Shown piece by piece: positions 3,350 through 62,481 of a stretch of 64,000 nucleotides of DNA. Positions within the stretch are counted from its first letter, which is position 1; each line of letters starts with the position of its first letter. Both the position numbers and the translations under genes were made by a program. Origin of the DNA: Mycobacterium sp. 050128. Lineage in GTDB: Bacteria; Actinomycetota; Actinomycetes; Mycobacteriales; Mycobacteriaceae. The notes beneath the pieces were generated by a model, which ran no database searches, was not told where the DNA came from, and was given only the letters and a program-made list of their open reading frames with translations. The DNA lies in assembly GCF_036409155.1 (NCBI RefSeq), contig NZ_JAZGLW010000001.1, positions 1,550,001-1,614,000 on the forward strand, read 5' to 3'.

Positions 3350-3355
3350 CGTGTC

Positions 3356-6603: not shown

Positions 6604-6616
6604 GATGTACTCGGCT

Positions 6617-8543: not shown

Positions 8544-11063
<2,520 letters not shown>

Positions 11064-36869: not shown

Positions 36870-38312
36870 GTGTCTGAAGCCGCCGACGATGTAGAGCTGC
36901 TGACGTCGGCTTGGATTGCCCTGAATCAGCACGCCGCCGTGCTGGGCGGATTGGGCGCCTTGTTCGAGGCCGCGGGGCACGACCTGTATCTGGTCGGCGG
37001 ATCGGTGCGCGACGCGCTGCTGCACCGGTTGAGCCCCGATCTGGACTTCACCACCGACGCGCGGCCCGAGCAGGTGCAGCAGATGGTTCGGGGCTGGGCC
37101 GACGCGGTCTGGGATACCGGCATCCAATTCGGCACCGTGGGCGTCGGCAAGGACGAGCACCGCCTGGAAATCACCACGTTCCGCGCGGACAGCTACGACC
37201 AGGTGTCACGCAATCCCGAGGTGAAGTTCGGTGACCGCCTTGAAGACGACTTGGTGCGCCGCGATTTCACCGCAAACGCGATGGCCGTGCGCATCACGTC
37301 GACCGGCCCGGGCGAATTCCTCGATCCCCTCGGCGGTTTGGCGGCGCTCAAGGCGCGCGTACTGGACACCCCGGCGGCACCGTCGGTGTCGTTCGGCGAC
37401 GACCCGCTGCGGATGCTGCGCGCCGCGCGGTTCGTTTCGCAGCTTGGGTTCACCGTCGCCCCCCGGGTGCGCACGGCGATCGAGGAGATGGCCCCGCAGC
37501 TGGCCCGGATCAGCGCCGAACGGGTGGCCGCCGAGCTGGACAAGCTGCTCCTAGGCGCCGACCCGGTCGCCGGCATCGACTTGGTGGTGCAGACCGGGAT
37601 GGGTGAAGTTGTGCTGCCCGAAGTCGGCGCCATGCAGATGGCCATCGACGAACACCACCAGCACAAGGACGTCTACCAGCACTCGCTGACCGTGCTGCGC
37701 CAAGCCGTCGAGCTCGAAGATGACGGCCCCGACTTGGTGCTGCGCTGGGCGGCGTTGCTGCACGACATCGGCAAGCCCGCCACCAGACGCCACGAAGAAA
37801 ACGGCGGCGTGAGCTTTCACCACCATGAGGTCGTCGGCGCCAAGATGACCCGCAAGCGGATGCGGGCGCTCAAGTACTCCAAGCAGATGGTCGACGACGT
37901 CTCCCAGTTGGTGTATCTGCATCTGCGCTTCCACGGCTACGGCGACGGGAAGTGGACCGACTCCGCGGTGCGCCGCTACGTCACCGACGCCGGGCCGCTG
38001 CTGCCGCGGCTGCACAAGCTGGTCCGCGCCGACTGCACCACCCGCAACAAGCGCCGTGCCGCGCGGCTGCAGGCCAACTACGACCGGCTCGAGGCGCGCA
38101 TCGCCGAGCTGGCCGCCCAGGAGGATCTGGCGCGGGTGCGTCCCGATCTGGACGGCAATCGGATCATGGAGCTGCTGGACATTCCGGCCGGGCCGCAGGT
38201 CGGTGAGGCATGGCGGTTCTTGAAAGAGCTGCGCCTGGACCGCGGGCCGCTGACCGACGAAGAAGCCACCGCGGAGCTGCTGGCCTGGTGGAAGACGCGC
38301 GGCAACACTTAA
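36870..38312 (+). CDS. pcnA: CCA-adding tRNA nucleotidyltransferase
   Basis: Adds or repairs the 3' CCA of tRNAs, needed here because the two tRNA genes in this window do not encode CCA. It is 480 aa. The nucleotidyltransferase motif GGSVRD is at residues 43-48 with catalytic DLDF at 57-60. A conserved RRDFTANAMAV block follows, and then an HD domain (HKDVYQHSLTVL, HDIGKPATR near residue 298, FHHHEVVGA). It corresponds to Mtb Rv3907c. The start is GTG. Confidence 0.96.
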   Translation: MSEAADDVELLTSAWIALNQHAAVLGGLGALFEAAGHDLYLVGGSVRDALLHRLSPDLDFTTDARPEQVQQMVRGWADAVWDTGIQFGTVGVGKDEHRLEITTFRADSYDQVSRNPEVKFGDRLEDDLVRRDFTANAMAVRITSTGPGEFLDPLGGLAALKARVLDTPAAPSVSFGDDPLRMLRAARFVSQLGFTVAPRVRTAIEEMAPQLARISAERVAAELDKLLLGADPVAGIDLVVQTGMGEVVLPEVGAMQMAIDEHHQHKDVYQHSLTVLRQAVELEDDGPDLVLRWAALLHDIGKPATRRHEENGGVSFHHHEVVGAKMTRKRMRALKYSKQMVDDVSQLVYLHLRFHGYGDGKWTDSAVRRYVTDAGPLLPRLHKLVRADCTTRNKRRAARLQANYDRLEARIAELAAQEDLARVRPDLDGNRIMELLDIPAGPQVGEAWRFLKELRLDRGPLTDEEATAELLAWWKTRGNT

Positions 38313-40303: not shown

Positions 40304-40331
40304 ACACCGGTCGTCCGTCGCTCGGCGCGCC

Positions 40332-40337
40332 TAGGAT
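40332..40337 (+). promoter_or_regulatory. Putative -10 of the second PknF-like kinase (leaderless)
   Basis: TAGGAT ends 7 bases before the ATG at 40345, the start homologous to that of the first kinase. An in-frame ATG at 40336 lies inside the hexamer and is unlikely to be used. Confidence 0.5.
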
Positions 40338-40344
40338 GCAGCGC

Positions 40345-42467: not shown

Positions 42468-42974
42468 ATGGACTACTGCCTGGCAGGCGATAACGGCGCG
42501 GCGATGTGGCACGGCCAACCCGACCTCGACCTCGATCACGACGGCCGCCTCGAATCAATCGCACTGGACTTCGACCATGACGGCATGCGCGACGACGCGT
42601 TGGCGGACCTCGACGGCGATGGATTGGTCGATCACGCGGTGCTCGACCTCGACAATGACGGCACGCCCGAGGCGTACTTCACCGATGACGGATCGGGAAC
42701 CTGGGCGGTGGCGATGGACCGGGCCGGGGGATTGCGCTGGTACGGGCTCGACGGCGTGGAACACACCGGCGGGCCGCTGGTCGACTTCGACGGGCTCGGG
42801 CGCCCGGACGATCGGCTGCTGGACGTCGACGGCAATGGGGTGGCCGACCGGGTGCTGTGCACCGGCGAGACCGGCGTGACCGGTTATGTGGATACCGACG
42901 GCGACGGACGGTGGGATGTCCGGTTATCCGATACCGACGGTGACGGGTCGGCAGACGGCGCGGCCCGCCTTTGA
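42468..42974 (+). CDS. Aspartate-repeat protein (Rv3906c-like, dockerin/EF-hand-like motifs)
   Basis: A 168-aa acidic protein with about eight DxDxDG-like units (DLDHDG, DFDHDG, DLDGDG, DLDNDG, DVDGNG, two DTDGDG), the pattern of calcium-binding thrombospondin-3 or dockerin loops. It begins MDYCLAGDNGAAMWHG and resembles Mtb Rv3906c, which also neighbours pcnA. No signal peptide is visible, so export, if any, would need another route; proximity to ESX genes makes type VII export worth considering. The function is unknown. Confidence 0.82.
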   Translation: MDYCLAGDNGAAMWHGQPDLDLDHDGRLESIALDFDHDGMRDDALADLDGDGLVDHAVLDLDNDGTPEAYFTDDGSGTWAVAMDRAGGLRWYGLDGVEHTGGPLVDFDGLGRPDDRLLDVDGNGVADRVLCTGETGVTGYVDTDGDGRWDVRLSDTDGDGSADGAARL

Positions 42975-43039
42975 CATGGTGTTTTACGGCTTTCGCGAAT
43001 GGGTAAATCAACGCCTGTGCAGCAGGCAAACCATCTGAA

Positions 43040-43067
43040 GTGACAGACCCCGATCCCTGTCTACACT
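43040..43067 (+). promoter_or_regulatory. Putative promoter of esxD-esxC
   Basis: A -35-like GTGACA (43040-43045), a 16-base spacer and a -10 TACACT (43062-43067) predict a start near 43074 and a leader of about 42 bases with GAGGGAG before the esxD ATG. It lies in the 141-base junction between the Rv3906c-like gene and esxD, so the shortened ESX locus has its own promoter. Confidence 0.55.
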
Positions 43068-43115
43068 CTTATCCATATCCGGTCGGGGAGGCCGAGGAAA
43101 TCGAGGGAGAAAAAA

Positions 43116-43439
43116 ATGCCGAGTTCAACCGTTGTCACACCGGAACTGCTGCGCGCTTCACAGCAGAAGATCGAGTCGCGACTGCAAGAGGCAGCCGCCA
43201 TTGCCAATCAATACCTGAGCGGCCACGAGAACGTCGTCAGCGCCGCCGGGTGGACCGGCCAGGCCGGGACGACGTCGCTGAACACCGCCGGCCAAATCCA
43301 GCACGATCTGCAGCAGATCATGACCGGCGGCAACCGGTTGGCGCACGGCCTCGGCAAGACGGCCACGCTGATGGAACACCACGAAGCCGATTCGGCCCAC
43401 AACCTCAATGGTGTGTTCGGCGGAGTCCAGTCCACCTAA
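43116..43439 (+). CDS. esxD: WXG100 protein EsxD
   Basis: A 107-aa ESAT-6-like helical hairpin protein, the same length as Mtb EsxD (Rv3891c). It has the WTG turn (SAAGWTGQAG) between two helices, plus the EsxD-like HENVV, LQQIMTGGNRLAHGL and MEHHEADS stretches. It is expected to pair with EsxC as a heterodimeric type VII substrate. Shine-Dalgarno GAGGGAG precedes the ATG. The ESX-2 genes that precede esxD in Mtb (eccB2, eccC2, PE36, PPE69) are absent. Confidence 0.93.
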   Translation: MPSSTVVTPELLRASQQKIESRLQEAAAIANQYLSGHENVVSAAGWTGQAGTTSLNTAGQIQHDLQQIMTGGNRLAHGLGKTATLMEHHEADSAHNLNGVFGGVQST

Positions 43440-43482
43440 GTCGGCAACCCCAAAAGCCTAACTACCGTAAGGAATAACAAAA

Positions 43483-43779
43483 ATGTCAGACCAGATCACC
43501 TACAACCACGCCGTCGTCAGCGGCCTCACCGGTGACATCGCAACCCAAGCCGCGCAATTGATGGAAATTCACGACGACGTGCTGCACATCACCCAGTCGC
43601 TGGCCGAGTTCTTCCAGGGCCAGGGCGCCACGTCGTTCTTCGACGCGCAACAGCAGATGCTGCACGGGTTGCAGGACATGATTCAAACCGTCAGCCTGCA
43701 CGGGCACACGGTGGGCAATGTGCACGAGGCCGCCATAAACGCTGACAGTTTGACGGCCGGTTTCTTCAACCAGGCGTAG
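43483..43779 (+). CDS. esxC: WXG100-superfamily protein EsxC
   Basis: A 98-aa partner of EsxD, similar to Mtb EsxC (Rv3890c): MSDQITYNHAVVSGL, then FFQGQGATSFFDAQQQMLHG and IQTVSLHGHT. The Trp of the WXG turn is replaced by FQGQG, as in other EsxC proteins, so the recognisable WXG lies in EsxD. AAGGAA precedes the ATG. A strong hairpin follows the stop. Confidence 0.93.
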   Translation: MSDQITYNHAVVSGLTGDIATQAAQLMEIHDDVLHITQSLAEFFQGQGATSFFDAQQQMLHGLQDMIQTVSLHGHTVGNVHEAAINADSLTAGFFNQA

Positions 43780-43789
43780 TCCCGGCTTG

Positions 43790-43817
43790 GCGGGGCGCAC
43801 GTAAGCGTGCGCCCCGC
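43790..43817. terminator. GC-rich hairpin after esxC (attenuator or mRNA-end hairpin)
   Basis: A perfect 12-bp stem (GCGGGGCGCACG and its complement) with a 4-base loop TAAG, starting 10 bases after the esxC stop and 22 bases before espG2. There is no T-tract, so partial termination or 3'-end stabilisation is more likely than full termination. It could keep EsxDC levels above those of the downstream machinery. Confidence 0.65.
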
Positions 43818-43838
43818 ACTTGGCTCTAAGGGAAGACC

Positions 43839-44672
43839 GTGCTGACCACCTCTCTAGACGGCCTCTGGGTCCTACAAGTACTCACCGGCATCGAGGTCCT
43901 GGCTCCCGAGATGGGGCTGCGACCGCATCTGCCCCGCGTCGAGCCCAAACACCAGGCGCTGGCACACCCGGTGACCGCGGAGCTGCGCGCCGCCGGGGCG
44001 ATCGACGAAACCGACTCCGTCGACGGTGCGATCGTCGAATGGCTGACCGTGCTGTCGCGCCGCGACATCGGATTGCTGGTGCACTTCCGCCTGGCCGACG
44101 ACGGCGAACCGGCGCGCGCATTGCTCGCCAGGTTCGCACACTGGTGGGTCGCCATCGAGCGATCCGGAGACCTGGTCCGGATCAGCGGGGCGGGCATCGC
44201 GAACAACGAGGGCACCGCCAGCGCGGCGCTCAACACACAAATCGAAAGACTATGCGGCGCAAATGATCCTGCGCCGCTGCGTCCGGTCACGCTGGACGCG
44301 GATGCGATGCGCGCCACCGCCACCGACGAGCGATCGCTGCACGAGTTCCTGGGCAGTCAAGGCCTCGATGCCGATCAGGTGCACATGCTGAAACTGGCCA
44401 CCGATCCCAGCCGCTCGGCCCAGGCCTCGATCGTCGCCCTGCAGTCCGGGGTGGAAACCGGCCTGGCGACCCGGACCCACTTCGAACCGGGCGCAGTGAC
44501 GATCATCGATACGACGGAAGGACGTGTCGTCGCCGAACAGGTTTCGTCCGGGGGCAAGAACTGGATGATCATCGCGCCGGGGACCAAGAACAACATCGGT
44601 ACCGCGATCAACCATATGGTGCGGCGGCTTCCGGCCAACGAAGAATGGCATTCGTACCGAAAAGTCGTGTAG
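43839..44672 (+). CDS. espG2: EspG-family type VII secretion chaperone (EspG2)
   Basis: A 277-aa cytosolic protein similar to Mtb EspG2 (Rv3889c). Marks are the N-terminal LTTSLDGLWVLQVLTGIE, REWL-like VEWLTVLSRRDIGLLV, RLCGANDPAPLRPVTLDADA and the C-terminus RRLPANEEWHSYRKVV. EspG proteins bind the tip of PPE proteins in PE-PPE pairs and guide them to their own ESX system. No PE or PPE gene is present in this window, so its client must be elsewhere or lost. The start is GTG. Confidence 0.93.
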   Translation: MLTTSLDGLWVLQVLTGIEVLAPEMGLRPHLPRVEPKHQALAHPVTAELRAAGAIDETDSVDGAIVEWLTVLSRRDIGLLVHFRLADDGEPARALLARFAHWWVAIERSGDLVRISGAGIANNEGTASAALNTQIERLCGANDPAPLRPVTLDADAMRATATDERSLHEFLGSQGLDADQVHMLKLATDPSRSAQASIVALQSGVETGLATRTHFEPGAVTIIDTTEGRVVAEQVSSGGKNWMIIAPGTKNNIGTAINHMVRRLPANEEWHSYRKVV

Positions 44673-44694
44673 TCGAAAGGCAGTGCGAAAATGA

Positions 44695-44700
44695 TAGCAT
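44695..44700 (+). promoter_or_regulatory. Putative -10 of the espI-like gene (leaderless)
   Basis: TAGCAT ends 7 bases before the GTG at 44708, in the short gap after espG2, suggesting an internal promoter for the machinery half of the locus. Confidence 0.45.
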
Positions 44701-44707
44701 CGGCATC

Positions 44708-45736
44708 GTGACGAATCCGTGGACGGGCTCATCCAATTCACCGGAACAGGGCGGACCGACGCGGCGAGAAGCGCCCGCCCCGCAGTACCAAAATCAAGAT
44801 TCGGTGTCCGGAACATTACGCATTTCCGATATGGTCGCCCCGCGCAAAATTCCGCCCGGTGGAGGCTGGCGTAAATTCCTGTATCAGGTGTCGGGCCATG
44901 TCATCAACTTCGGCGAATCGCCGTCCGAAAGACACTATCGCGAGCTGCAGGAGCGCATCCGTCGTCACATCCGCAAGCAGTACGTGGTGGGGGTCGTCTC
45001 GGGAAAGGGTGGCGTCGGTAAGACCACGATGACCGCCTGCATCGGTGCGGTGTTCCGCGAATGCCGGCCCGAAAATGTCGTCGCGATCGACGCGGCCCCC
45101 GGCTTTGGCACGCTGGCGGGGCGGATCGATGAATCTCCGCCGGGCGACTACGCGGCGGTCCTCAACGACACCGACGTGCAGGGCTACGCCGATATCCGAG
45201 AACACTTGGGGCAGAACAGTCTTGGGCTCGACGTGCTGGCCGGCAACCGCGCGTCCGATCAGCCGCGGCCGTTAGTGGCCTCGATGTTCTCCGGAGTGCT
45301 GTCGCGGCTGCGCCGCACCCACACCGTGATCGTGGTGGACACCTCCGACGACCTCGAGCACCCCGTGATGAAAGCGGTGCTCGACGCGTGCGACACCCTG
45401 GTGTTCGTGTCCGGTCTCACCGCCGACACCTCGTTGCCGGTGACCCGTGCGATCGACCTGCTGCGCTCGATGGGTTACCACGAGCTGGTGTCGCGCAGCA
45501 TGGTCATCCTCAATGACAGTCGCGACAAATACGACGCGGAGGCGCGCACTTATCTCACCGAGCGTTTCGCTCAATCGGGCGCAACGGTCGAATTCATGCC
45601 GTACGACCCATTCCTCGCAAAAGGTGGGATCATTGACACCCGGCATGAACTGAAGAAGAAAACCCGCCTGCGCATATTCGAAATCACCGCGGCATTGGCC
45701 GACAAATACATTCCAGATGCCGACAGGCCGCGTTAA
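44708..45736 (+). CDS. EspI-like P-loop ATPase of the ESX-2 locus (Rv3888c-like)
   Basis: A 342-aa MinD/ParA-like ATPase. A short Pro/Gln-rich N-terminus (about 60 aa) precedes the domain with Walker A SGKGGVGKTT (residues 98-107, Lys105), VAIDAAPGFGTLAGR, VVDTSDDLEHPVMKAV and VILNDSRDKYD. It corresponds to Mtb Rv3888c. EspI of ESX-1 is thought to limit secretion when ATP is low; whether this paralogue does is not known. GTG at 44708 is chosen because MTNPW matches homologues. It abuts eccD2. Confidence 0.88.
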   Translation: MTNPWTGSSNSPEQGGPTRREAPAPQYQNQDSVSGTLRISDMVAPRKIPPGGGWRKFLYQVSGHVINFGESPSERHYRELQERIRRHIRKQYVVGVVSGKGGVGKTTMTACIGAVFRECRPENVVAIDAAPGFGTLAGRIDESPPGDYAAVLNDTDVQGYADIREHLGQNSLGLDVLAGNRASDQPRPLVASMFSGVLSRLRRTHTVIVVDTSDDLEHPVMKAVLDACDTLVFVSGLTADTSLPVTRAIDLLRSMGYHELVSRSMVILNDSRDKYDAEARTYLTERFAQSGATVEFMPYDPFLAKGGIIDTRHELKKKTRLRIFEITAALADKYIPDADRPR

Positions 45737-47230
45737 ATGACCCCGTACGTGGGTAAGGTCTCGTTTCCAGCCCGTTGTGCGGTCGCCGTCGTATGTGGAG
45801 AACATCTGGTTTCGCAGGTCTATCCGGCGTCGGTGCCGATCGAGGCCTTCATCGACAACGTCGTGGAGCTGGTCAACGAGGAACTCAAACGCCGGGGTTT
45901 CATCGGCCTCGAGTCCGGCATCGGCTACGAACTTCACAAGGCCAACGGGGTACGGCTGGACGTCACCAAGACGCTTGACGAACTCGGCGTAGAAGACGGT
46001 GCCACCCTCACCTTGGTCCCCGCGGTAGCGGGCGAATCGTTCGAGCCGCAGTATGAGTCGTTGTCGACGGGTTTGGCCCGGGTCGGCAAGGCCCTGTTCG
46101 AGCCGGTCACGCTCAAGACCGCCGCGCACACCGCGTTGGTGATCCTGGCGATGGTCTCCCTGACCCTGTTGGGACTGGCTGTGCGCCAACGCGTTTCCAC
46201 CGACTCGCTGATGCCCACCATCGTGACCGGGGCGGCCGGTCTGCTGATCGCCGGTGGCGCGACCACGGTATGGCGATGGTGGCCGGGCCGCACCGACATG
46301 GTCGACGGGCTCGGCTGGATCGCGTTGCCATTGCTCACGGCCAGCCTGGCGTCCGGCGCGCCGGGGCCCGTCGGGGCCGCGCACGCATTTATCGCCGCTC
46401 TGGCGGGCGCGATGCTGACCTGTGGAATCGCTTCTGCGACAGGGCGTCACGCGAATGTGGCGGCGACCGTGGTGACCGTACTGGGGCTCGGCGGCGCGGC
46501 CGCCGCGGCCCGGATGTGGTGGCCCGTGCCCGCGCAATGGCTGGGCATGTGCGCGCTTGTCGCCCTGCTCCTGCTGCTGACCATGGCCCCGACGATCGCG
46601 CTGTGGGTCGCGCGGATCCGGCCGCCCTATTTCGGCTCGATCACCGGGCGCGATCTGTTCCGGCGCAGCGCCGGCCTACCCGCTGACGCGGTGTCGCCCG
46701 TCGAGGAAGGCGCCGACGACGAAGCCAATTCCGACACCACGCCGCGCGGTGCCCAGATCGCGCTCGCGGCGGTCCATGCCAACAACGTGCTGACCGGAAT
46801 CTGCGTGGGAGCGGGGTTGACCCTGCCCGTCGCGGTGTGGGCCACCCTGATGCCGGGTCATGACCGCAGCCTGCCGGCCGCCGTTTTGGCCGGCCTGTTC
46901 GTGGTGATCTTCATCAGCCGGGGGCGGGCTTTCGCCGACAAACGACAGGCGATCGCGCTGGTCTGCGGTGCGGCCGCGGCGTTGTGCGTCGGCGTCGCGA
47001 AATTCGTTCTGCACGAGCCGACTTCGTCGGGCTACGGGTTGTTATGGGGTGCCCTGGTTCTGGCCGTCTTCGGCGGCGCCGGCCTGCTGTCCGCCCTACT
47101 CGTGCCGATCACCCGGTTCACCCCGCTGGTGCGGATGACCGCCGAATGGGTGGAGATCGCAGCGATCATCGCGGCCCTGCCGCTGGCCGCATGGATCGGC
47201 GGATTGTTCACCTGGGTGCGCATGCGATGA
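45737..47230 (+). CDS. eccD2: ESX-2 type VII membrane component EccD
   Basis: A 497-aa protein with a cytosolic ubiquitin-like N-terminus (about 1-95: ARCAVAVVCGEHLVSQVYPA, DGATLTLVPA) and about eleven transmembrane helices from near residue 130 (THTALVILAMVSLTLLGLAV-type stretches). EccD forms the large membrane vestibule of the ESX pore around EccB, EccC and EccE. It starts on the base after the espI-like stop and overlaps mycP2 by 4 bases (ATGA). Confidence 0.94.
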   Translation: MTPYVGKVSFPARCAVAVVCGEHLVSQVYPASVPIEAFIDNVVELVNEELKRRGFIGLESGIGYELHKANGVRLDVTKTLDELGVEDGATLTLVPAVAGESFEPQYESLSTGLARVGKALFEPVTLKTAAHTALVILAMVSLTLLGLAVRQRVSTDSLMPTIVTGAAGLLIAGGATTVWRWWPGRTDMVDGLGWIALPLLTASLASGAPGPVGAAHAFIAALAGAMLTCGIASATGRHANVAATVVTVLGLGGAAAAARMWWPVPAQWLGMCALVALLLLLTMAPTIALWVARIRPPYFGSITGRDLFRRSAGLPADAVSPVEEGADDEANSDTTPRGAQIALAAVHANNVLTGICVGAGLTLPVAVWATLMPGHDRSLPAAVLAGLFVVIFISRGRAFADKRQAIALVCGAAAALCVGVAKFVLHEPTSSGYGLLWGALVLAVFGGAGLLSALLVPITRFTPLVRMTAEWVEIAAIIAALPLAAWIGGLFTWVRMR

Positions 47231-48885
47231 CCCGGATGGCGCCCACCGCTCGCGCACTGACCCAGCGGGTCGCCGCCACGGCGCTGACGTGCCTGCTGGT
47301 TATCTTGATAGCGGGACTACCTGCGGCCCAAGCGATTCCACCGCCAGTAGTTGATCCAGGCCGGGTACCGGCCGACGGCAAGCCGGCGTCCGATCAGCCG
47401 ATGCGCCAAGCCTTCACCTGTGCACGGACGATTACCGTCGCCGATCCGAACGTGGTCCTGCCCGCGCCCGGCTTCACGATGCTCAACGTCAGCAAGGCCT
47501 GGCAGTATTCGACCGGCAACGGGGTGCCCGTCGCGGTCATCGACACCGGCATCAACCCGAGTCGCCGACTGCCGGTGGTGGCCGGTGGCGACTACATCAT
47601 GGGCGGTGACGGTCTGAGCGACTGCGACGCGCACGGCACCGTCGTGGCGTCCTTGATTGGCGCTGCGCCGCAAGGCATTCCGATGCCGGCCCCGATGCCG
47701 AGCGCCCCCGCCTTCCCGCCACCGGCGGGCCCGCCGGCAACCGATGCGGCAGCACCGCCACCCGGCGGGCCACCGCCGCCGCCCGCACCTCCGCCACCGC
47801 CCTCGCCGGTGACGATCACCCAAACGGTGGCACCGCCGCCGCCACCGCCCCCACCCGACGCGCCATCGAACGGGCCGGGGGACCCCGCGCCCGGACAGCC
47901 CGACGATCCCGAGGTGCCACCACCGCCCCCGGGCGCACCCGATGGAGTCGCGGGCATCGCGCCGCACGCGACCGTCATCTCCATCCGCCAGTCCTCGCGT
48001 GCCTTCGAGCCGGTGAACCCCGGCGGCGGCGACTTCGAGGGACGCAAGAAGGCCGGCACCATCGCGACACTGGCCAGCGCGATTGTGCACGCGGCCAACA
48101 TGGGCGCGAAGGTGATCAATATCAGTGTCACCGCCTGTGTTTCGGCCGCCGACCCGCTGGATCAGACCGCCATGGGCGCCGCGGTCTGGTACGCGGCCAC
48201 GGTCAAAGATGCGGTCATCGTCGCCGCGGCCGGCAATGACAACGAAGAAGGCTGCGCCCAAAACCCGACCTTCGACCCGCTCAACGCGTCCGATCCGCGC
48301 GACTGGCACCAGGTCAAGACGGTATCGTCGCCGTCCTGGTTCTCCGACTACGTGTTGTCGGTGGGTGCGGTCGACAACACCGGCGCACCGATCAACAAGA
48401 GCCTGGCCGGACCCTGGGTGGCCGCGGCGGCACCGGGCGTCGGGATCATGGGTCTGTCGCCGGAAACCGGGGGACCCGTGAACGCCTACCCGCCGATCCG
48501 GCCGGGCGAGAAGAACATGCCGTTCTGGGGCACCAGCTTTTCCGCGGCGTATGTCAGCGGGGTGGCGGCGTTGGTGCGGGCCAAATATCCGGGACTGTCC
48601 GCACACCAGATCATCAACAGGATTCTGCAGACCGCGCACAATCCACCCCGCGGTGTGGACAACCAGGTTGGCTACGGCGTGGTGGACCCGGTGGCCGCGC
48701 TGACCTTCGATGTGCCTGCGGGGGAACGGCTTTCACCCGGTGCCGCCAGTCGTGTTCTGCACCCGGCACCGCCGCCACCGCTACCGGATCACCGCGCCCG
48801 CAATGTCGCAATGATCTTCGCCGGTGTGGTGGCGGCGACGATCGCGGTCGTCGCGCTGATCGTTCGAGCGAGGCGCGAGCGATGA
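47227..48885 (+). CDS. mycP2: Mycosin MycP2 (membrane-anchored subtilisin-like protease)
   Basis: A 552-aa S8 protease of ESX-2 (Mtb MycP2 is about 550 aa). Signal sequence (VAATALTCLLVILIAGLPAAQA), catalytic Asp106 (VAVIDTGIN), His136 (DAHGT) and Ser437 (GTSFSAAY) are intact, with oxyanion Asn in AAAGNDNE. A Pro-rich loop of about 90 residues is inserted after His136, characteristic of MycP2. A C-terminal transmembrane helix (VAMIFAGVVAATIAVVALIV) and a short Arg tail end the protein. Mycosins stabilise the ESX complex on the periplasmic side. Confidence 0.95.
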   Translation: MTRMAPTARALTQRVAATALTCLLVILIAGLPAAQAIPPPVVDPGRVPADGKPASDQPMRQAFTCARTITVADPNVVLPAPGFTMLNVSKAWQYSTGNGVPVAVIDTGINPSRRLPVVAGGDYIMGGDGLSDCDAHGTVVASLIGAAPQGIPMPAPMPSAPAFPPPAGPPATDAAAPPPGGPPPPPAPPPPPSPVTITQTVAPPPPPPPPDAPSNGPGDPAPGQPDDPEVPPPPPGAPDGVAGIAPHATVISIRQSSRAFEPVNPGGGDFEGRKKAGTIATLASAIVHAANMGAKVINISVTACVSAADPLDQTAMGAAVWYAATVKDAVIVAAAGNDNEEGCAQNPTFDPLNASDPRDWHQVKTVSSPSWFSDYVLSVGAVDNTGAPINKSLAGPWVAAAAPGVGIMGLSPETGGPVNAYPPIRPGEKNMPFWGTSFSAAYVSGVAALVRAKYPGLSAHQIINRILQTAHNPPRGVDNQVGYGVVDPVAALTFDVPAGERLSPGAASRVLHPAPPPPLPDHRARNVAMIFAGVVAATIAVVALIVRARRER

Positions 48886-50423
48886 CCGCTGCCACGAAGC
48901 TGACGATCATCTTCGCCATCTTCATCGCCGCCACGATTGGATGGGCGGTCGGCGGATACCCCGGTGCGGCAGCGGGTTTGGTGATCGGGATCGCGCTCGG
49001 CGTGATCCGATGGCGCGGCCAGCCGATGTGGTCCTGGTTGATCCTGTGGCTTCGGCGCCGTCGCCCGATCGCGTGGACGGAGCCGCTCACGGTGGCCAAT
49101 GACCGTGCCGGCGGCGGCATCCGCTGCCAGGACGGCGTCGCCGTGGCCGCGGTCCAGCTGCTCGGAAAGGCGCACGCACCAACGCTGTTCACCGGTTCGA
49201 CCGCGACCTATACCGAAAACTCCTTCGACGTCACCGAGCTGATGCCGCTGCTGCACCAGAGCCTGGGCCTCACCCTGGATTCGCTGAGCGTGGTCACCGT
49301 GGGCGCCCGCCGTCGCAGCACGGGCGACTATCCGCGGGTGTACGACACGCTGATCGGCACACCGCCCTATGCCGGCCAGCGCGAGACGTGGCTCATCGTG
49401 CGCATCGCGGCCCTGGGCAATGTCGAGGCGCTGCGCGGGCGCACCTCGCTCGGCACCGCCACCCTCGCGGCCGCCCAGCGAATCGGCGCGGCGCTGCGGC
49501 AACGCGGCATCCGCGCCAAGGTCGCCACCGCCACCGACATCGTCGAGATGGAGCGGCGGTTGGGCCGCTCCGCGCTGGACGTCTCGAATCGGCGGTGGCG
49601 ATCGGTGCGCGGCGACAGCGGGTGGTTGACCACCTATTGGTACCGGCCCGGCGACATCACCTCGGAGACGCTGGCCGAAGCATGGTCGGCACGCGTCGAC
49701 GGGATTGTGCAGAACATCACGCTTTTCGGTGACGGCACCGCGACGGCCACCGTCACCGTACGCAGCGCCCAGCCACCGTCGGCGTCATTGAGCATGCGAC
49801 TGAAGACCTTGCGGGGCGAGCAGGCACAGGCCGTCGCCGCGAGTCTGTGCGGACCGCTGCCACCTTTGCGCGGCATCCGTCGTGGGGTGCTGCACGGTCC
49901 GCTCGTCCTCCCGATCGGGCCGTCGGGTGTGCTGCTCGGCAAGGTCGCCGGCGGGAATCGGATGCTGCTGCCGCTCGACGACGCCGGGGAGTTCAGCCGG
50001 GTGCATGTCGCCGCAGAGGACGCGCTGGCCAAGCGGTTCATCATCCGCCTGGCCGGTGCCGGCGAGCGGATCACGGTGCACACTCGAAACATGCAGCGGT
50101 GGGCCAGTGTTCGGATGCCGGACGTCGCCGTGACCGACCAGCCTAAGCCGGTGTCGGGCACCACGGTCAGCGTCGTCGACGGCAGCATGTCGCCGGCGCC
50201 GCGACCGAGCACCCTGATCTCGATCGGCGCGCCGGGCGAGCCGTACCGGGGAACCGCAAACGTGTTGATCACCCAGACGGGTCCGGCGACGGTCGATGTG
50301 ATCGCAGCCGACGGTCACCTGTATGAGGTGGAAGTCGAGCTATTCCGCGCCGAGAATAGGTACGTATCGTCGGAACCGATGGCATTGCGAACCCCTGATC
50401 TCGAAGCGGTGGACACCCCATGA
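48882..50423 (+). CDS. eccE2: ESX-2 type VII membrane component EccE
   Basis: A 513-aa protein with two N-terminal transmembrane helices (KLTIIFAIFIAATIGWAVGG and GAAAGLVIGIALGVIRW) and a periplasmic/peripheral EccE domain (GGGIRCQDGVAVAAVQLLGK, YWYRPGDI). EccE is at the outer edge of the ESX membrane complex. It overlaps both neighbours by 4 bases (ATGA), so mycP2-eccE2-eccA2 are translationally coupled. Similarity to the EccE1 further on is limited to the general fold. Confidence 0.92.
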   Translation: MTAATKLTIIFAIFIAATIGWAVGGYPGAAAGLVIGIALGVIRWRGQPMWSWLILWLRRRRPIAWTEPLTVANDRAGGGIRCQDGVAVAAVQLLGKAHAPTLFTGSTATYTENSFDVTELMPLLHQSLGLTLDSLSVVTVGARRRSTGDYPRVYDTLIGTPPYAGQRETWLIVRIAALGNVEALRGRTSLGTATLAAAQRIGAALRQRGIRAKVATATDIVEMERRLGRSALDVSNRRWRSVRGDSGWLTTYWYRPGDITSETLAEAWSARVDGIVQNITLFGDGTATATVTVRSAQPPSASLSMRLKTLRGEQAQAVAASLCGPLPPLRGIRRGVLHGPLVLPIGPSGVLLGKVAGGNRMLLPLDDAGEFSRVHVAAEDALAKRFIIRLAGAGERITVHTRNMQRWASVRMPDVAVTDQPKPVSGTTVSVVDGSMSPAPRPSTLISIGAPGEPYRGTANVLITQTGPATVDVIAADGHLYEVEVELFRAENRYVSSEPMALRTPDLEAVDTP

Positions 50424-52270
50424 CCAGCAGTACGACGCCGGCCGCCGCGCGAAAGTATTTTGACGCGGCGATGGCGTTGCTCGACAGCGACCCCGCCGCG
50501 GCCACGGCCCGGTTTCGGGAGGCAACCGAAGTCGACCCGTCGATGGCCGACGCCTGGCTGGGCCGGATCGCCGCGGGTGACGAGGCGTTGTCGACCGTCG
50601 AACAGCTCTACAACTACGGCAGCCGGCTGCACCGCGAGACCAACCGGATCGGTGCGCGACTGTCGGCCCCGATCAAAGCCGGGCCGTATCTGTCGATTTC
50701 GGTGACCGAGGCCTCGCATGCCGGCCTGGCGCTGGCGAGTGCGCTCATCGACGATCGCCAATACGAGAAAGCCGAAGCGCTGCTTGGTGATTCGACGTTG
50801 CTGGACACCTGGGAAAACCACCAGTGGAAGCAGTACATCGAGTCCTACCTGATGTTCGCCACCCAACGGTGGCCGGATGTCATCTCGGTGGCCGCGGCCA
50901 TCTTGCCACCGCAGGCCATCATCATGTCGGCGGTCACCGCGGCCACCTGCACGCTGGCGGCACATGCCGCGGCCCATCTCGGGCAGGCTCGCGTCGCGCT
51001 GGAATGGACCGACCGGGTCGAGCTGCGCGCCGGGTTCGGCGTCCCGACCGAGACGCGTCGTCAGCACCTCGAAACCGCGGTCACCGCAGTCGATCCCACC
51101 GACTTCCCGTTGATCGCCGCCGACCTCGCCTACGTGCGCGGGATGGCACATCGCCAGCTCGGCGAGGAGCCCAAGGCGCAGATCTGGCTGTCGAAGGCGA
51201 CGATCAACGGCGCATTGATCGAGCCGGCCAAACAAGCGCTGGCCGACCCCGCGCTGCAGTTGGTCGTCACCGACGAGGACGCCATCAGTTCGCGCACCAA
51301 CAAATGGGACGTGACCACCGAGCTGTCGGAGCAACAGCGACAGGAGGAGGAGCACCAGGAGCGGCGCACCGAACTGCTGCAGGAGGGCCGCGCGTTACTC
51401 GACAACCAAGTCGGGTTGGCCGACGTCAAACGCGCGGTCGCCGAACTCGAAGACCAGATCGAGGTTCGTGCGCTACGGCTGGCGGCGGGCCTGCCGGTGG
51501 CCAATCAGACCAACCACATGCTGCTGGTCGGACCGCCCGGCACCGGTAAGACCACTACCGCCGAGGCGCTCGGCAAGATCTACGCCGGGCTGGGCATCGT
51601 GCGTCATCCGGAGATCGTCGAAGTCAAGCGGGCGGATTTCTGCGGCGAGCACATCGGCGCATCGGGGCCGAAGACCAACGAGCTGATCAACCGATCGCTG
51701 GGCCGCATCCTGTTCATGGACGAGTTCTATTCGCTGGTGGAACGCCACCAGGACGGTCGGCCGGACATGATCGGCATGGAGGCGGTCAACCAGCTGCTGG
51801 TCGCGCTCGAGGTGCACCGGTTCGACTTCTGCTTCATCGGCGCGGGATACGAAAAGGAAGTCGACGAATTCCTCACCGTGAACCCGGGTCTGGCGGGCCG
51901 GTTCAACCGCAAACTGCGCTTCGAGTCCTACACACCCGATGAGTTGGTGGAAATCGCCGTCCGCTACGGCAAGCCGCGCGCCACGGTTCTCGAACCCGCC
52001 ACCGCCGAGGCGCTGAGCGCCGCCTGCGCAACATTACGCGGGTACCGCGCACCCGATGGCCAGCACGGTATCGACGTCATGCACAACGGCCGGTTCGCGC
52101 GCAATGTCGTTGAGCGAGCGGAACGGTTGCGCGACTCGCGGGTGGCCGCGCAGCACCGTGTCGACAAAGGGTCGGTGACCGTCGAGGATCTGCAAACGCT
52201 ACGTACCCAGGACGTCGTTGCGGCGGTGCGGGACGCGTGTGCGGAAAAGCATGTGCCGATAGTGCTTTGA
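50420..52270 (+). CDS. eccA2: ESX-2 cytosolic AAA+ ATPase EccA
   Basis: A 616-aa CbbX-type AAA+ protein (Mtb EccA2 is about 619 aa). The N-terminal half is a TPR-like helical array (AAARKYFDAAMALLDSDPAAA, YEKAEALLGDS). The C-terminal ATPase has Walker A GPPGTGKT (371-378), Walker B ILFMDEFY and an arginine-finger region (GLAGRFNRKLRFESY). EccA is thought to dissociate EspG from PE-PPE clients or act on Esx substrates. It ends the ESX-2 part; a 155-base gap follows. Confidence 0.95.
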   Translation: MTSSTTPAAARKYFDAAMALLDSDPAAATARFREATEVDPSMADAWLGRIAAGDEALSTVEQLYNYGSRLHRETNRIGARLSAPIKAGPYLSISVTEASHAGLALASALIDDRQYEKAEALLGDSTLLDTWENHQWKQYIESYLMFATQRWPDVISVAAAILPPQAIIMSAVTAATCTLAAHAAAHLGQARVALEWTDRVELRAGFGVPTETRRQHLETAVTAVDPTDFPLIAADLAYVRGMAHRQLGEEPKAQIWLSKATINGALIEPAKQALADPALQLVVTDEDAISSRTNKWDVTTELSEQQRQEEEHQERRTELLQEGRALLDNQVGLADVKRAVAELEDQIEVRALRLAAGLPVANQTNHMLLVGPPGTGKTTTAEALGKIYAGLGIVRHPEIVEVKRADFCGEHIGASGPKTNELINRSLGRILFMDEFYSLVERHQDGRPDMIGMEAVNQLLVALEVHRFDFCFIGAGYEKEVDEFLTVNPGLAGRFNRKLRFESYTPDELVEIAVRYGKPRATVLEPATAEALSAACATLRGYRAPDGQHGIDVMHNGRFARNVVERAERLRDSRVAAQHRVDKGSVTVEDLQTLRTQDVVAAVRDACAEKHVPIVL

Positions 52271-52332
52271 TCAGCCCGGATCCGCGAGCGGAGGCGCTCG
52301 GGCGCGCAGGTGCCAGCGTTGCGGGAAACCCG

Positions 52333-52360
52333 TTGTCGGCGCAGCCGGAAAGCTTAAGAT
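52333..52360 (+). promoter_or_regulatory. Putative promoter of mycP1-eccE1
   Basis: TTGTCG (52333-52338), a 16-base spacer and TAAGAT (52355-52360) lie in the 155-base gap between eccA2 and mycP1, compatible with separate transcription of the ESX-1 remnant. Confidence 0.35.
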
Positions 52361-52425
52361 GCACGCAGGCCCGCGACCGGGATAGTGCGGTGGCGAAACA
52401 AGGCTGACGAATGGAGCGTCCGGCG

Positions 52426-53772
52426 GTGCACCGTATCTTGCTGATCACGGTGGCGTTGCTGCTAGCCATGGTCAGTGCACCTCCCGCCGTGGCGGTATCG
52501 CCACCGTTGATCGACTCGACGGCGGTTCCACCCGATGTGACGGGTCCCGATCAGCCCCTGGAGCAGAAGCGTGTCTGTAAGGCGCCGTTGTCACTGCCGG
52601 GCACCAATTTCCACGACGCACCGTGGCCCAATACCTACCTCGGGATCACCCAGGCCCAGAAGTTCGCGACGGGAGCCGGCGTCACGGTGGCCGTGATCGA
52701 TACCGGGGTGGACGCCTCGCCCCGGGTTCCGGCCGAGCCTGGTGGCGACTTCGTCGTCAAGGACGGCAACGGGCTCTCCGATTGCGACTCGCACGGGACG
52801 CTCACCGCGTCGATCATCGCCGGGCGGCCCTCGCTGACCGACGGATTCGTCGGTGTCGCACCCGACGCGCGTTTGGTCTCGGTGCGCCAGACGTCGGAGG
52901 CCTTCGAGCCGAAGGATTCCCAACCCGACCAAAGCGACCCGAACGCGACGCCGGCCGCCGGCTCCGTACGCAGCTTGGCCCGCGCGGTGGTGCACGCGGC
53001 CAATCTGGGTGCCGGAGTGATCAACATCAGCGAGGCGGCCTGCTTCAAGGCGAAAAAGCAGGTCGACGAGACCACCTTGGGTGGCGCGCTCAACTACGCG
53101 GTCAACGTCAAGGGCGCCGTGGTCGTCGTCGCGGCCGGCAACGTCGGCGGGGATTGCCAGCAGAATCCGCCGCCCGACGCGGCCATTCCCTCCGATCCCC
53201 GCGGCTGGCAAGTGGTTCAGACGATTGTCACGCCGGCCTGGTACGCGCCACTGGTGCTGACCGTCGGGGGCGTCGGGCAAAACGGGGCACCGAGCGAATT
53301 TTCGATGCACGGACCGTGGGTGAGTGTGGCCGCCGCCGCCGACAACGTGATCGCGCTCGGCCCCGGCGGCGACCCGGTGGATGCGTTGTCGGGCAAGGAG
53401 GGCCCGGTGCCGATCGCGGGGACCTCGTTCGCGGCGGCGTACGTGTCCGGTCTGGCGGCGCTGGTGCGGCAGAAATTCCCCGACCTGACGCCGGCGCAGG
53501 TCATGCACCGGATCGTTGCGACGGCGCGCCACCCCGGGGGCGGCGTGGACGATGCCGTCGGTACGGGCATCATCGATGCGGTCGCGGCGCTCACCTGGGA
53601 CGTGCCCACCGGGCCGCCGACGACGGTGGATCCGGTCAAAGCGATTCAAGCCCCGGTGCCGGTGCCGGGCCCCGATCACGGGCCGATCGATGCTGTCACG
53701 ATGGGGGTCATGGGTTTGCTCGTCGCGCTGGGCCTGGCCGCGCTCGTCGGGCGAGCACTGAAACGGGACTGA
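52426..53772 (+). CDS. mycP1: Mycosin MycP1 (ESX-1-type)
   Basis: A 448-aa subtilisin-like protease closely similar to Mtb MycP1 (446 aa), unlike the neighbouring MycP2. It has a signal peptide (ILLITVALLLAMVSAPPAVA), catalytic Asp92 (VAVIDTGVD), His123 (DSHGT) and Ser334 (GTSFAAAY), and a C-terminal transmembrane helix (MGVMGLLVALGLAALVG). GTG at 52426 aligns with the Mtb start; ATG at 52411 is an alternative. In Mtb, MycP1 cleaves EspB and stabilises ESX-1; espB and the rest of ESX-1 are missing here. Confidence 0.94.
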   Translation: MHRILLITVALLLAMVSAPPAVAVSPPLIDSTAVPPDVTGPDQPLEQKRVCKAPLSLPGTNFHDAPWPNTYLGITQAQKFATGAGVTVAVIDTGVDASPRVPAEPGGDFVVKDGNGLSDCDSHGTLTASIIAGRPSLTDGFVGVAPDARLVSVRQTSEAFEPKDSQPDQSDPNATPAAGSVRSLARAVVHAANLGAGVINISEAACFKAKKQVDETTLGGALNYAVNVKGAVVVVAAGNVGGDCQQNPPPDAAIPSDPRGWQVVQTIVTPAWYAPLVLTVGGVGQNGAPSEFSMHGPWVSVAAAADNVIALGPGGDPVDALSGKEGPVPIAGTSFAAAYVSGLAALVRQKFPDLTPAQVMHRIVATARHPGGGVDDAVGTGIIDAVAALTWDVPTGPPTTVDPVKAIQAPVPVPGPDHGPIDAVTMGVMGLLVALGLAALVGRALKRD

Positions 53773-53780
53773 CGAAGCCC

Positions 53781-55181
53781 ATGCGATCACTACGACTCCG
53801 GTTCAGCAGCGGTCACGCGATGTGGGCGGCCGCGCTGGCTCCGCTGTGCATCCTGCTGTTCATGGGGACGCGCTACGAGTGGGCCGGCCCAACCCTGGTG
53901 GGGGTCGGCGCCGTGATCGCGACGGTCACCTTCCGCGGCCGGCGGCTCACCGGCTGGGTGGTGGCGATGTTCGCTTGGCTGCTGCGGCATCGCCGGTCAC
54001 TCGAACTCCCCTCCGAGGCCGAGGTCGGTGCCACCGTCCTGCCCGGCGACCACGTGGCCGTGCGCTGGCAAGGCGAGCATCTGGTCGCGGTCATCGAGCT
54101 CATTCCGCGGCCGTTCACGCCGACGGTGGTCGTCGACGGGAAGGCGAACACCGACGATGTGGTCGACACGCGGTTGCTCGAGCAACTGCTCGCGGTGCAC
54201 TGCCCCGACTTGGAGGCCGAGGTGGTGTCGGCCGGCTTCCGGGTGGGCAAGACGGCGTCCGCGGAGGTGCTGAATTTGTACCGGGAAGTGATCGGTCGTG
54301 ACCCCGCGCCGGCGTACCGGCGGACCTGGATCGTGATGCGCGCCGACCCGCTGCGCGCTCAGGCGTCGGCGCGGCGGCGCGACGAGGGCGCCGCGGGGAT
54401 CGCCCGCTACCTGGTGGCGTCGACCACGCGGATCGCCGACCGGTTGGCCAGCCACGGCGTCGATGCCGAATGTGCACGCAGTTTCGACGATTTCGACCAC
54501 GCGACCGAGATCAGCTTCGTGCGGGAGAAGTGGTCGAAGATCAAGGGGCAGGACAACTTCACCGCCGCCTACATCGCGCCGGGCGGCCCGGATGTGTGGT
54601 GGTCGGCGCCGGCCGATCACACCATCACCCGGGTCCGCATCGCCGCGGGGATGGCGCCGCGCTCCACGGTGCTGCTGACCACGGCGAAGAAAGCGAAAAG
54701 ACCGCGCGGCTTTTCGCGCGTATCGGGTGGGCAGCGTGCCGCGCTGCAAGGCCAGACCGTCGTCTCCGGCCGCCACTGGCAACTGCCGATCGGCTCGGCG
54801 GGCGTACTGGTCGGCGAGACGGCGAGCCAGTATCCGGTCTACATGCCGTTCGACGATGTCGACGCGAGCATCAACCTGGGTGATGCCCGGGCATTCATGC
54901 AATTCGCCGTCCGTGCGGCGGCCGCGGGCGGAACCGTGACGCTCGCAGCGCATTTCCAGGAATTCGCCGATCTGATCGGCGCGAACGTCGGGCCGGAGTC
55001 GAAGGTGTCGTGGCCGCACGCGACAACGTATCTGGGCCGGCATTCCGGGGTGGACCGGGTGATCTTGCGCAACAACGTGATCAGCACCCCACGGCACCGC
55101 CAATTGCCGATCCAACCGGTTTCCCAGCCCGACGAAAGCCGCTATCTGAGCGCGCTGCCCGGTAGGCGCGAAGGCTCCTGA
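53781..55181 (+). CDS. eccE1: ESX-1-type membrane component EccE1
   Basis: A 466-aa protein (Mtb EccE1 is about 462 aa) 8 bases after mycP1. There are two N-terminal transmembrane helices (MWAAALAPLCILLFMG and GPTLVGVGAVIATVTF), then the EccE domain (GDHVAVRWQGEHLVAVIEL, WSAPADHTITRVRIA) and the C-terminus RYLSALPGRREGS. A much longer open frame continues upstream but there it only shadows mycP1; the ATG at 53781 is the family start. Confidence 0.92.
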   Translation: MRSLRLRFSSGHAMWAAALAPLCILLFMGTRYEWAGPTLVGVGAVIATVTFRGRRLTGWVVAMFAWLLRHRRSLELPSEAEVGATVLPGDHVAVRWQGEHLVAVIELIPRPFTPTVVVDGKANTDDVVDTRLLEQLLAVHCPDLEAEVVSAGFRVGKTASAEVLNLYREVIGRDPAPAYRRTWIVMRADPLRAQASARRRDEGAAGIARYLVASTTRIADRLASHGVDAECARSFDDFDHATEISFVREKWSKIKGQDNFTAAYIAPGGPDVWWSAPADHTITRVRIAAGMAPRSTVLLTTAKKAKRPRGFSRVSGGQRAALQGQTVVSGRHWQLPIGSAGVLVGETASQYPVYMPFDDVDASINLGDARAFMQFAVRAAAAGGTVTLAAHFQEFADLIGANVGPESKVSWPHATTYLGRHSGVDRVILRNNVISTPRHRQLPIQPVSQPDESRYLSALPGRREGS

Positions 55182-55329
55182 CGCCCTAGCTCAGGGCACC
55201 GGGTTGGCCCAGATGAACAGGTATTTAACTGTCTTCGGGGTACTGCGGGTCGCCTTACACTAAGAGTCTGCGTGGCCGAGGCACTCGCCCAGGCAGGCCG
55301 GCTATCCCCGACGCGAAGGAAGATCTGAC

Positions 55330-55677
55330 GTGCAACCACAAGAGCACCCGCAGGCCACTGCGGTCATGGACGAGTTCAAGAAGTTCGGCGACGTCCTCGA
55401 GGGCGCCTTGAAGCAGCGGGGCACCGGCTCCTTCACGGCCAAGGACGAATCGGAGACCGTCGAGGTGGTCATCAACGGTGACATGTGTGTGACGCAGGTT
55501 CACATCGAGGACGGCCTGCTGCGGTTGGGCGCCGAAACAGTGCAGGAGCGCATCAACGAGGCGCTCGCGAAGGCCACCTCCGAGGCGGCGGCGAGCATCG
55601 AGGCGAGCCAGGCGGAGACCTTCGAAAAGCTGTCCAAGATCGTCGATTCGCTGCAGAAGATCGCCGGAGAGGATTAG
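55330..55677 (+). CDS. espL: EspL-like YbaB/EbfC-family protein
   Basis: A 115-aa protein, the same length as Mtb EspL (Rv3880c) and with the same core: LKQRGTGSFTAKDESETVEV, NGDMCVTQVHIEDGLLRLGAETVQERINEAL split over two blocks, and a C-terminal helix. YbaB-like proteins bind DNA or act as chaperones; EspL stabilises EspE, EspF and EspH in ESX-1 organisms. None of those partners is in this window. In Mtb espB lies between eccE1 and espL; here the 148-base gap has no espB. A -10-like TACACT is at 55256-55261. Confidence 0.88.
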   Translation: MQPQEHPQATAVMDEFKKFGDVLEGALKQRGTGSFTAKDESETVEVVINGDMCVTQVHIEDGLLRLGAETVQERINEALAKATSEAAASIEASQAETFEKLSKIVDSLQKIAGED

Positions 55678-56517: not shown

Positions 56518-56529
56518 CCAGGTCTGCGG

Positions 56530-57546: not shown

Positions 57547-57568
57547 GCTCTCGCTGGAGGTTGGTCGG

Positions 57569-59195: not shown

Positions 59196-59199
59196 CGCA

Positions 59200-60629: not shown

Positions 60630-60633
60630 TTCG

Positions 60634-61626: not shown

Positions 61627-61642
61627 CAGAAGTATCGGAACC

Positions 61643-62467: not shown

Positions 62468-62481
62468 GAGATCCCCGCTTC

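What the first reader, a model, noticed from the sequence alone, without database searches (positions are those of the whole stretch)
43116..55677. Composite ESX-2/ESX-1 type VII locus without EccB or EccC but with every remaining frame intact
The order esxD-esxC-espG2-espI-like-eccD2-mycP2-eccE2-eccA2-mycP1-eccE1-espL reproduces the end of the Mtb ESX-2 locus joined to the end of ESX-1. The window has no EccB, no EccC motor ATPase, no PE and no PPE gene. EccB and EccC are core parts of every known ESX pore, so this set cannot work alone. Yet no stop, frameshift or lost catalytic residue is seen, and the MycP and EccA active sites are conserved. Either it borrows EccB/EccC from another locus, or it has a reduced role, or the deletion is recent.
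Basis: partly seen in the sequence, partly recalled or inferred. Interest (0 to 1): 0.85.

Follow-up and report, generated by a model that had tools for sequence, protein, structure and literature searches.

The report
Secretion system split across replication origin
A protein-export machine of mycobacteria that looked half missing here is in fact complete: an ancient flip of the chromosome around the replication origin left its two halves on opposite sides of the origin, and both halves are still intact and carry the same kind of switch-like DNA element.

Summary
The gene order is real: esxD-esxC-espG2-espI-like-eccD2-mycP2-eccE2-eccA2 followed by mycP1-eccE1, all open, with no EccB or EccC in the window. 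The paradox is not. The ESX-1 genes belong to a complete ESX-1 whose EccB1/EccCa1/EccCb1 lie 11-17 kb past the window end. An intact eccB2-eccC2-PE-like-PPE block lies 22-30 kb before the window start, inverted, with dnaA between the halves. Unsplit relatives show how: one origin-spanning inversion (breaks PPE69|esxD and h168|o-30351) converts their order into this one. Eleven further genomes show the same split; both halves give the split genomes as one clade and are under purifying selection. A promoter-like TGAANNGAC element precedes esxD in 49 of 49 genomes and PE36 in 13 of 16 split ones. A split ESX-2 is already in print (M. paragordonae, read as lateral transfer; M. avium complex, 'transposition'), so the kind is known. 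New here: the oriC inversion, its clade-wide spread, the shared element, and two M. gordonae genomes that lack EccC2 through a base-identical deletion yet keep the other half open.

The parts
16885..18375 (-). dnaA; oriC is expected next to it, between the two ESX-2 halves
   Evidence: TIGR00362 over cut-off, with dnaN, recF, gyrB, gyrA following; oriC itself not mapped
36870..38312 (+). CCA tRNA nucleotidyltransferase (pcnA), synteny anchor
   Evidence: TIGR02692
38354..42423 (+). two Ser/Thr kinase genes between pcnA and h168, present in some members of the clade
   Evidence: PF00069; gene orders
42468..42974 (+). h168, anchor gene; next to o-30351 in unsplit relatives
   Evidence: DUF6802 below cut-off
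42975..43115 (.). inversion junction h168|esxD
   Evidence: in unsplit genomes esxD follows PPE69 and h168 meets o-30351
43036..43045 (+). TGAAGTGACA, promoter-like element 80 bp before esxD; TACACT at 43062-43067
43116..43439 (+). esxD
   Evidence: PF06013
43483..43779 (+). esxC
   Evidence: PF06013
43839..44672 (+). espG2
   Evidence: PF14011
44831..45736 (+). espI-like P-loop ATPase (longest frame from 44645)
   Evidence: PF01656
45737..47230 (+). eccD2
   Evidence: TIGR03920
47227..48885 (+). mycP2 (longest frame from 46984)
   Evidence: TIGR03921
48882..50423 (+). eccE2
   Evidence: TIGR03923
50420..52270 (+). eccA2
   Evidence: TIGR03922
52411..53772 (+). mycP1, part of ESX-1
   Evidence: TIGR03921
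53820..55181 (+). eccE1, part of ESX-1
   Evidence: PF11203 in the longer frame from 52623; start
55330..55677 (+). YbaB-family frame in the espL position
   Evidence: PF02575

Best explanation
The window holds one half of a complete ESX-2 system and the tail of a complete ESX-1. Shown: the other ESX-2 half (eccB2-eccC2-PE-like-PPE) lies intact on the same contig, inverted, on the far side of dnaA. One origin-spanning inversion, with breaks at PPE69|esxD and h168|o-30351, derives this order from the order kept in unsplit relatives. The break fell at what is the widest gap inside ESX-2 in those relatives, just upstream of the promoter-like element of esxD, so no frame was harmed. The two halves have been co-inherited and constrained since. 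Inferred: both halves are transcribed from their own promoters, which share the TGAANNGAC element, and the products assemble in trans into one membrane pore: EccB2-EccC2 from one locus, EccD2-EccE2-MycP2-EccA2 from the other, handling PE/PPE from the first and EsxC/EsxD from the second with EspG2 as chaperone.
For: EccB and EccC present with PPE. dnaA lies between the halves in 12 genomes, the window's included; in 5 of these across the contig ends of what I take to be circular chromosomes. The predicted pre-inversion neighbours h168 and o-30351 were found side by side in 6 of 10 unsplit lineage-A genomes (one with a small called frame between), with two other called genes between in 3; the tenth, G083, lacks o-30351. 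Unsplit G060 has the whole ESX-2 where the C-half still sits. C-half tree (16 split rows) and D-half tree (15 split rows) each give them as one clade, SH-aLRT 100. EccC2 in 65 of 66 genomes with EccD2. dN/dS in G000/G110/G132: eccB2 0.05-0.06, eccC2 0.04-0.05, eccD2 0.07-0.08, mycP2 0.08-0.10, eccE2 0.09-0.13, eccA2 0.06-0.08. Shared element; controls eccA2 0 of 15, espG2 0 of 19, h168 0 of 19, eccC2 0 of 16, eccB2 0 of 16.
Against: No expression or secretion data; assembly in trans is inferred. The element before PE36 is missing in 3 of 16 split genomes and in 11 of 12 other lineage-A genomes, and its number in the window or in 154 kb is no higher than chance, so it may be an ordinary -35 region; only its place and conservation speak for it. 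Some split genomes have broken frames: G031 eccC2, G108 eccD2, and both halves in G076, the M. genavense contig. A four-gene tree with gyrA/gyrB placed G060 and G083 inside the inverted set; trees with rpoB did not.
Confidence: 0.85

Rival explanations
1. The D-half works with an EccB/EccC borrowed from a paralogous ESX system.
For: Six other EccB and six other EccC loci exist in this genome. Two M. gordonae genomes keep an open D-half without EccC2.
Against: Unneeded here: cognate EccB2/EccC2 of the same lineage are present, constrained and co-inherited. The own EccB paralogues are 34-46% identical; the one own EccC paralogue listed is 33%.
Confidence: 0.06
2. The EccB2/EccC2 half came later by lateral transfer, as proposed for M. 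paragordonae (PMC6616192).
For: Printed claim. G148, close to G006 (dS 0.02-0.14 by gene), shares with G120 a base-exact deletion of this half, so a regain in G006 is possible.
Against: In the split clade the half sits in its ancestral place beside h262/WhiB, its tree gives the same clade as the other half, and plasmid relatives reach only 47.7%.
Confidence: 0.04
3. The locus is decaying after a recent break.
For: Broken frames in G031, G076 and G108; M. gordonae lost one half.
Against: dN/dS far below 1 in both halves; one junction shared by a large clade.
Confidence: 0.04
4. The split is an assembly error.
For: The own genome is a 52-contig draft.
Against: Both halves are on one 3.64-Mb contig, and five single-contig genomes (G110, G031, G143, G006, G045) show the same split.
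Confidence: 0.01

Closest known systems
ESX-2 of M. paragordonae (PMC6616192, passages read)
   Same: ESX-2 in two distant regions; first part (8 ORFs) next to ESX-1, second part with pe36, eccC2, eccB2; those genes not detected in M. gordonae
   Different: the passages read do not place oriC between the parts, name no inversion, and read the second part as lateral transfer
ESX-2 of the M. avium complex (PMC4791881, passages read)
   Same: eccB2-eccC2 displaced; among the genomes here G036, G046 and G080, which I take to be of this kind, have dnaA between the parts
   Different: break at eccC2|PE36 instead of PPE69|esxD, and a divergent ESX-2 lineage (EccD 50-52%, EccC 57-58%)
ESX-2 of M. tuberculosis (order Rv3884c-Rv3895c, recalled; span also in PMC6616192)
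   Same: same kinds of genes in the same order within each half; EccC2 needed for phagosome permeabilisation there (PMC8593097, passages)
   Different: contiguous; no named M. tuberculosis sequence was compared here

Membership tests
ESX-2 type VII secretion system | EccB, EccC, EccD, EccE, MycP, EccA present | tested here: met
   NCBIfam models over cut-off for EccA2, EccD2, EccE2, MycP2 and EccB2, EccC2
ESX-2 type VII secretion system | WXG100 pair and EspG | tested here: met
   PF06013 x2, PF14011 over cut-off; the NCBIfam WXG100 model stays below its cut-off
ESX-2 type VII secretion system | PE and PPE genes | tested here: inconclusive
   PPE met (PF00823 E 9.8e-14); the PE-like frame only E 0.25, named by position
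ESX-2 type VII secretion system | closest by sequence to the ESX-2 clade | tested here: inconclusive
   EccC 59-62% to the second chromosomal lineage (67% for one fragment), then 41% or less among listed matches; no named M. tuberculosis protein compared
ESX-2 type VII secretion system | secretes its Esx/PE/PPE substrates | not testable with these tools
   needs proteomics
ESX-1 | EccB1, split EccCa1/EccCb1, EccD1, EsxA/EsxB, MycP1, EccE1 | tested here: met
   PPE and EspB beside them

The most novel reading that the evidence does not exclude
In the M. gordonae group the D-half (EsxC/D, EspG2, EccD2, MycP2, EccE2, EccA2) has outlived the loss of its own EccB2/EccC2: two genomes share a base-identical deletion and still keep these frames open, as far as covered, and as constrained as in complete relatives.
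Probability: 0.15. Interest if true: 0.8.

Novelty: new member of a known kind. Interest (0 to 1): 0.5.

Why it matters
It removes an apparent exception to the rule that every ESX pore has its own EccB and EccC, and warns that a core gene missing from one window can lie across oriC. It offers an inversion in place of lateral transfer as the origin of split ESX-2 loci in the M. simiae/szulgai/asiaticum/gordonae groups, gives a shared promoter-like element as a test of how halves on both sides of the origin are kept in step, and points to M. gordonae as a natural test of whether one ESX system can use another's motor.

Tried and rejected
Rejected: borrowing, decay, lateral transfer and assembly error for this genome (see rivals). 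I first thought a truncated PPE69 in M. gordonae refuted lateral transfer everywhere. The base-exact deletion shared by G120 and G148, while G006, close to G148, has the half, leaves a regain in G006 open, so I withdrew that for G006. A search for remnants of eccB2-PPE69 beside o-30351 in G026, G029, G105 and G017 gave nothing convincing (in G026 two PPE-like genes with 27-42% local matches to PPE69). One search is a faulty tree (antisense rpoB frames) and was replaced. The four-gene tree conflicts on G060 and G083. The low dN/dS of the M. gordonae PPE69 remnant (0.08; a cruder extraction gave 0.28-0.29 for G120 against G006 and G047) is odd if the deletion is old and is unexplained. A paper search for the 10-mer gave no mycobacterial paper among the 10 of 26 listed. 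No structure prediction was run: it could not decide between the readings.
Full report
What is there. The window is C1:1550001-1614000 of a 6.73-Mb, 52-contig draft. No EccB or EccC profile match lies in the window; the genome has seven EccB loci, each with an EccC within a few kb. By EccD2 the nearest named relatives are M. ahvazicum (97%) and M. triplex (94%) (the own species may be left out there).

ESX-1. Beyond the window end, on the minus strand, lie EccD1, two WXG100 proteins in the EsxA/EsxB positions, EccCb1, EccCa1, EccB1 and EccA1, with a PPE gene on the same strand and EspB on the plus strand. With mycP1-eccE1 in the window this is a complete, convergently arranged ESX-1. The order resembles that of M. 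tuberculosis, which I recall.

The missing ESX-2 half. At C1:1520441-1527730 (window coordinates -29559 to -22270), minus strand, lie eccB2, eccC2 (1359 aa, EccCa and EccCb models over cut-off), a 101-aa PE-like frame (PE model only E 0.25) and a PPE gene. Upstream of them are DUF2710, DUF5631/5632, DUF2694, EspC-like, DUF4226, NlpC/P60 and HTH_3 genes, then a divergent WhiB gene. dnaA lies between this block and esxD. Gene names such as h168, h262, o-30351 and o-14812 are labels; o-30351 is a maleylpyruvate-isomerase-like gene and o-14812 the WhiB gene.

How it came about. EccD2 and EccC2 were searched in 148 genomes of the genus and dnaA in 39 chosen ones. EccD2 at E <= 1e-60 is found in 66 of 148; by identity 34 are of this lineage (A, 58% or more) and 32 of a second lineage (B, 54% or less); none of the 66 shows both at this threshold. 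In lineage A, 12 genomes (own included) have dnaA between the halves: seven on one contig, five across the ends of a chromosome-sized contig. Four more show the junction genes on separate contigs (G113, G010, G076 at both junctions; G007 at h168|esxD only, its other contig ends after PE36) and one has the D-half only (G120). Ten have the halves adjacent on one strand. G094 and G072 have the halves on different contigs, broken at eccC2|PE36. Five were too fragmented to judge. At the PPE69 end, G064 and G023 have other genes next to PPE69 and the G116 contig ends there. In the unsplit G060 the whole ESX-2 abuts the WhiB gene on the gyrA side, exactly where the C-half sits in the split genomes. 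One inversion around oriC, with breaks at PPE69|esxD and h168|o-30351, turns the first order into the second. It predicts h168 next to o-30351 in unsplit genomes. Of ten examined this was seen in G060 (with one 80-aa called frame between), G009, G071, G098, G084 and G012; G136, G093 and G024 have two other called genes between o-30351 and pcnA; G083 lacks o-30351.

Clade and names. Of 80 named loci kept from 100 relatives found, 43 are lineage A, and 28 of these have h168 within two genes upstream of esxD, among them M. ahvazicum, M. triplex, M. montefiorense, M. szulgai, M. angelicum, M. asiaticum, M. gordonae, M. genavense, M. intermedium and M. sherrisii; 13 have PPE69 there and 2 neither. 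In three trees of 30 chosen genomes (rpoB alone; rpoB plus seven genes as protein and as DNA) the 18 genomes with the inverted order form one clade (SH-aLRT 99-100), and the 12 split lineage-A genomes alone do not: one-clade AU tests give p 1e-95 (DNA), 0.0013 (rpoB) and 0.0021 (protein). Lineage-B genomes G026, G029, G105 and G017 are nested among them and still hold the lineage-A accessory block beside o-30351, in G026 and G105 with a few frames between. My inference is that the split is ancestral in this clade and that lineage B later replaced it more than once (3 to 5 changes on the trees). Against this: no remnant of the lost half was found, the tree with gyrA/gyrB disagrees on G060 and G083, and the added markers other than rpoB lie near oriC.

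Do the halves belong together? The C-half tree (16 split rows) and the D-half tree (15; G116 and G120 fell short of the gene minimum) each give the split genomes as one clade with support 100. EccC2 accompanies EccD2 in 65 of 66 genomes (one as a fragment only); of 82 without EccD2, five have EccC2, three of them from genomes no more than 80% complete and one truncated (read off the tables). dN/dS among G000, G110 and G132 is 0.04-0.06 for eccB2/eccC2 and 0.06-0.13 for eccD2, mycP2, eccE2 and eccA2; PE36 (0.15-0.31), PPE69 (0.14-0.16) and espG2 (0.13-0.21) are looser. Unsplit G136/G024 give 0.03-0.06 for the six machine genes. Higher values: eccD2 0.24 in G108-G007 (G108 broken), mycP2 0.49 in G064-G023 (G023 in two called pieces), espG2 0.57 in G000-G076. 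In the M. genavense contig (G076) both halves are broken while pcnA, mutT4 and the Rv3909 homologue are whole.

Why the break was harmless. In whole lineage-A loci the widest gap is PPE69|esxD (median 143.5 bp, n=8) and the next is eccC2|PE36 (116 bp, n=9). The breaks inside ESX-2 seen here fall at these two: the first in this clade, the second in G036, G046, G080, G094 and G072. In lineage B the widest gap is another one, espG2|espI-like (364 bp), where no break was seen.

A shared element. TGAANNGAC precedes esxD in 19 of 19 split-A genomes, 11 of 11 other lineage-A genomes in which esxD was located (G012 was not, though its locus L233 holds the exact motif) and 19 of 19 lineage-B genomes: TGAAGTGACA in A, TGAATCGACA in B. 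A -10-like box (TANN[CA]T) follows at 16-17 bp in 19 of 19 B genomes but in only 7 of 19 split-A and 7 of 11 other A genomes. The element precedes PE36 in 13 of 16 split-A genomes (as TGAATCGACA), in 1 of 12 other A genomes (at -4, probably chance) and in 6 of 19 B genomes. It precedes DUF2710, the gene before eccB2, in 15 of 15 (as TGAATTGACG; chosen after looking). Controls: eccA2 0 of 15, espG2 0 of 19, h168 0 of 19, eccC2 0 of 16, eccB2 itself 0 of 16. In the own 154 kb TGAANNGACA occurs twice, before esxD and before PE36, with 1.9 expected by chance; in the window once with 1.1 expected. So the number is ordinary; the places and the conservation are not. The looser TGAANNGAC occurs ten times with 15.8 expected, and only these two have TANNNT at the right distance. 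It may be no more than a -35 region with a conserved TGAA in front. The HTH_3 and WhiB genes by the C-half are candidate binders; this is a guess.

M. gordonae. G148 (M. gordonae CTRI 14-8773) has no EccC2 (best 34%); EccB2 was not searched there. In both, PPE69 from about codon 121 is fused into the WhiB gene at the same base, without a repeat at the junction. Their D-half genes are open where covered (mycP2 and eccA2 in part) and as constrained as in complete relatives: G120-G148 eccD2 0.15, eccE2 0.17, eccA2 0.07, against 0.11-0.18, 0.14-0.16 and 0.06-0.08 in G006/G047/G149 pairs. As G148 is much closer to G006, which has the half, the history involves a regain, a lineage-sorting case or a recurrent deletion; the M. 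marinum group shows a like pattern, which its authors read as incomplete lineage sorting (PMC9241763, passages). If the deletions are recent, the low dN/dS says little.

Known or new. PMC4791881 (passages): the M. avium complex is distinguished 'by the transposition of EccB2 and EccC2'. PMC6616192 (passages): ESX-2 of M. paragordonae in two distant regions, the second read as lateral transfer. PMC3749206 (passages) gives EccC2 of M. avium TH135 as MAH_4605 at 4.914 Mb and PPE69 as MAH_0168, which by tag number fits halves on both sides of the origin. Passages of PMC10619280 and PMC8025370 did not bear on the split. I found no paper that places oriC between the halves or describes the inversion, in the listings of searches of an open-licence library and the passages named here; the other listed papers were not opened. 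PMC8593097 (passages) shows that eccC2 is needed for phagosome permeabilisation in M. tuberculosis and calls ESX-2 restricted to that species; 66 of 148 genomes here carry an ESX-2-type EccD.

Noticed in passing
L149 and L150 (M. numidiamassiliense, one contig): Two inverted copies of the pcnA-h168-esxD...mycP1 region about 150 kb apart: a real duplication or an assembly artefact.
   Followed up: no
window 55732-63504: An island of two sulfotransferase-like genes, two GT9 glycosyltransferases, DUF4254, DUF6065 and TauD genes sits inside ESX-1 between the espL-like frame and espB.
   Followed up: partly
window 38354-42423: Two Ser/Thr kinase genes lie between pcnA and h168 in G000, G110, G031, G132 and M. 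ahvazicum, but not in M. triplex.
   Followed up: partly
66 of 148 genomes of the genus: ESX-2 lineages A (34 genomes) and B (32 genomes) were never found together at E <= 1e-60.
   Followed up: partly
G120, G080, G036, G001, G062 and others: Many draft contigs end about 100-600 bases after eccD2, near the start of mycP2, suggesting a stretch that is hard to assemble.
   Followed up: no
L029:14301-15089 (-) and L029:15188-15652 (+): An HTH_3 gene heads the block upstream of eccB2, divergent from a WhiB gene: candidate regulators of the shared element.
   Followed up: no
L123, L236, L237, L299, L301, L303: Extra genes are inserted between eccC2 and PE36 in G060, G029, G105, G057, G074 and G091, a recurrent insertion and break site.
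   Followed up: partly
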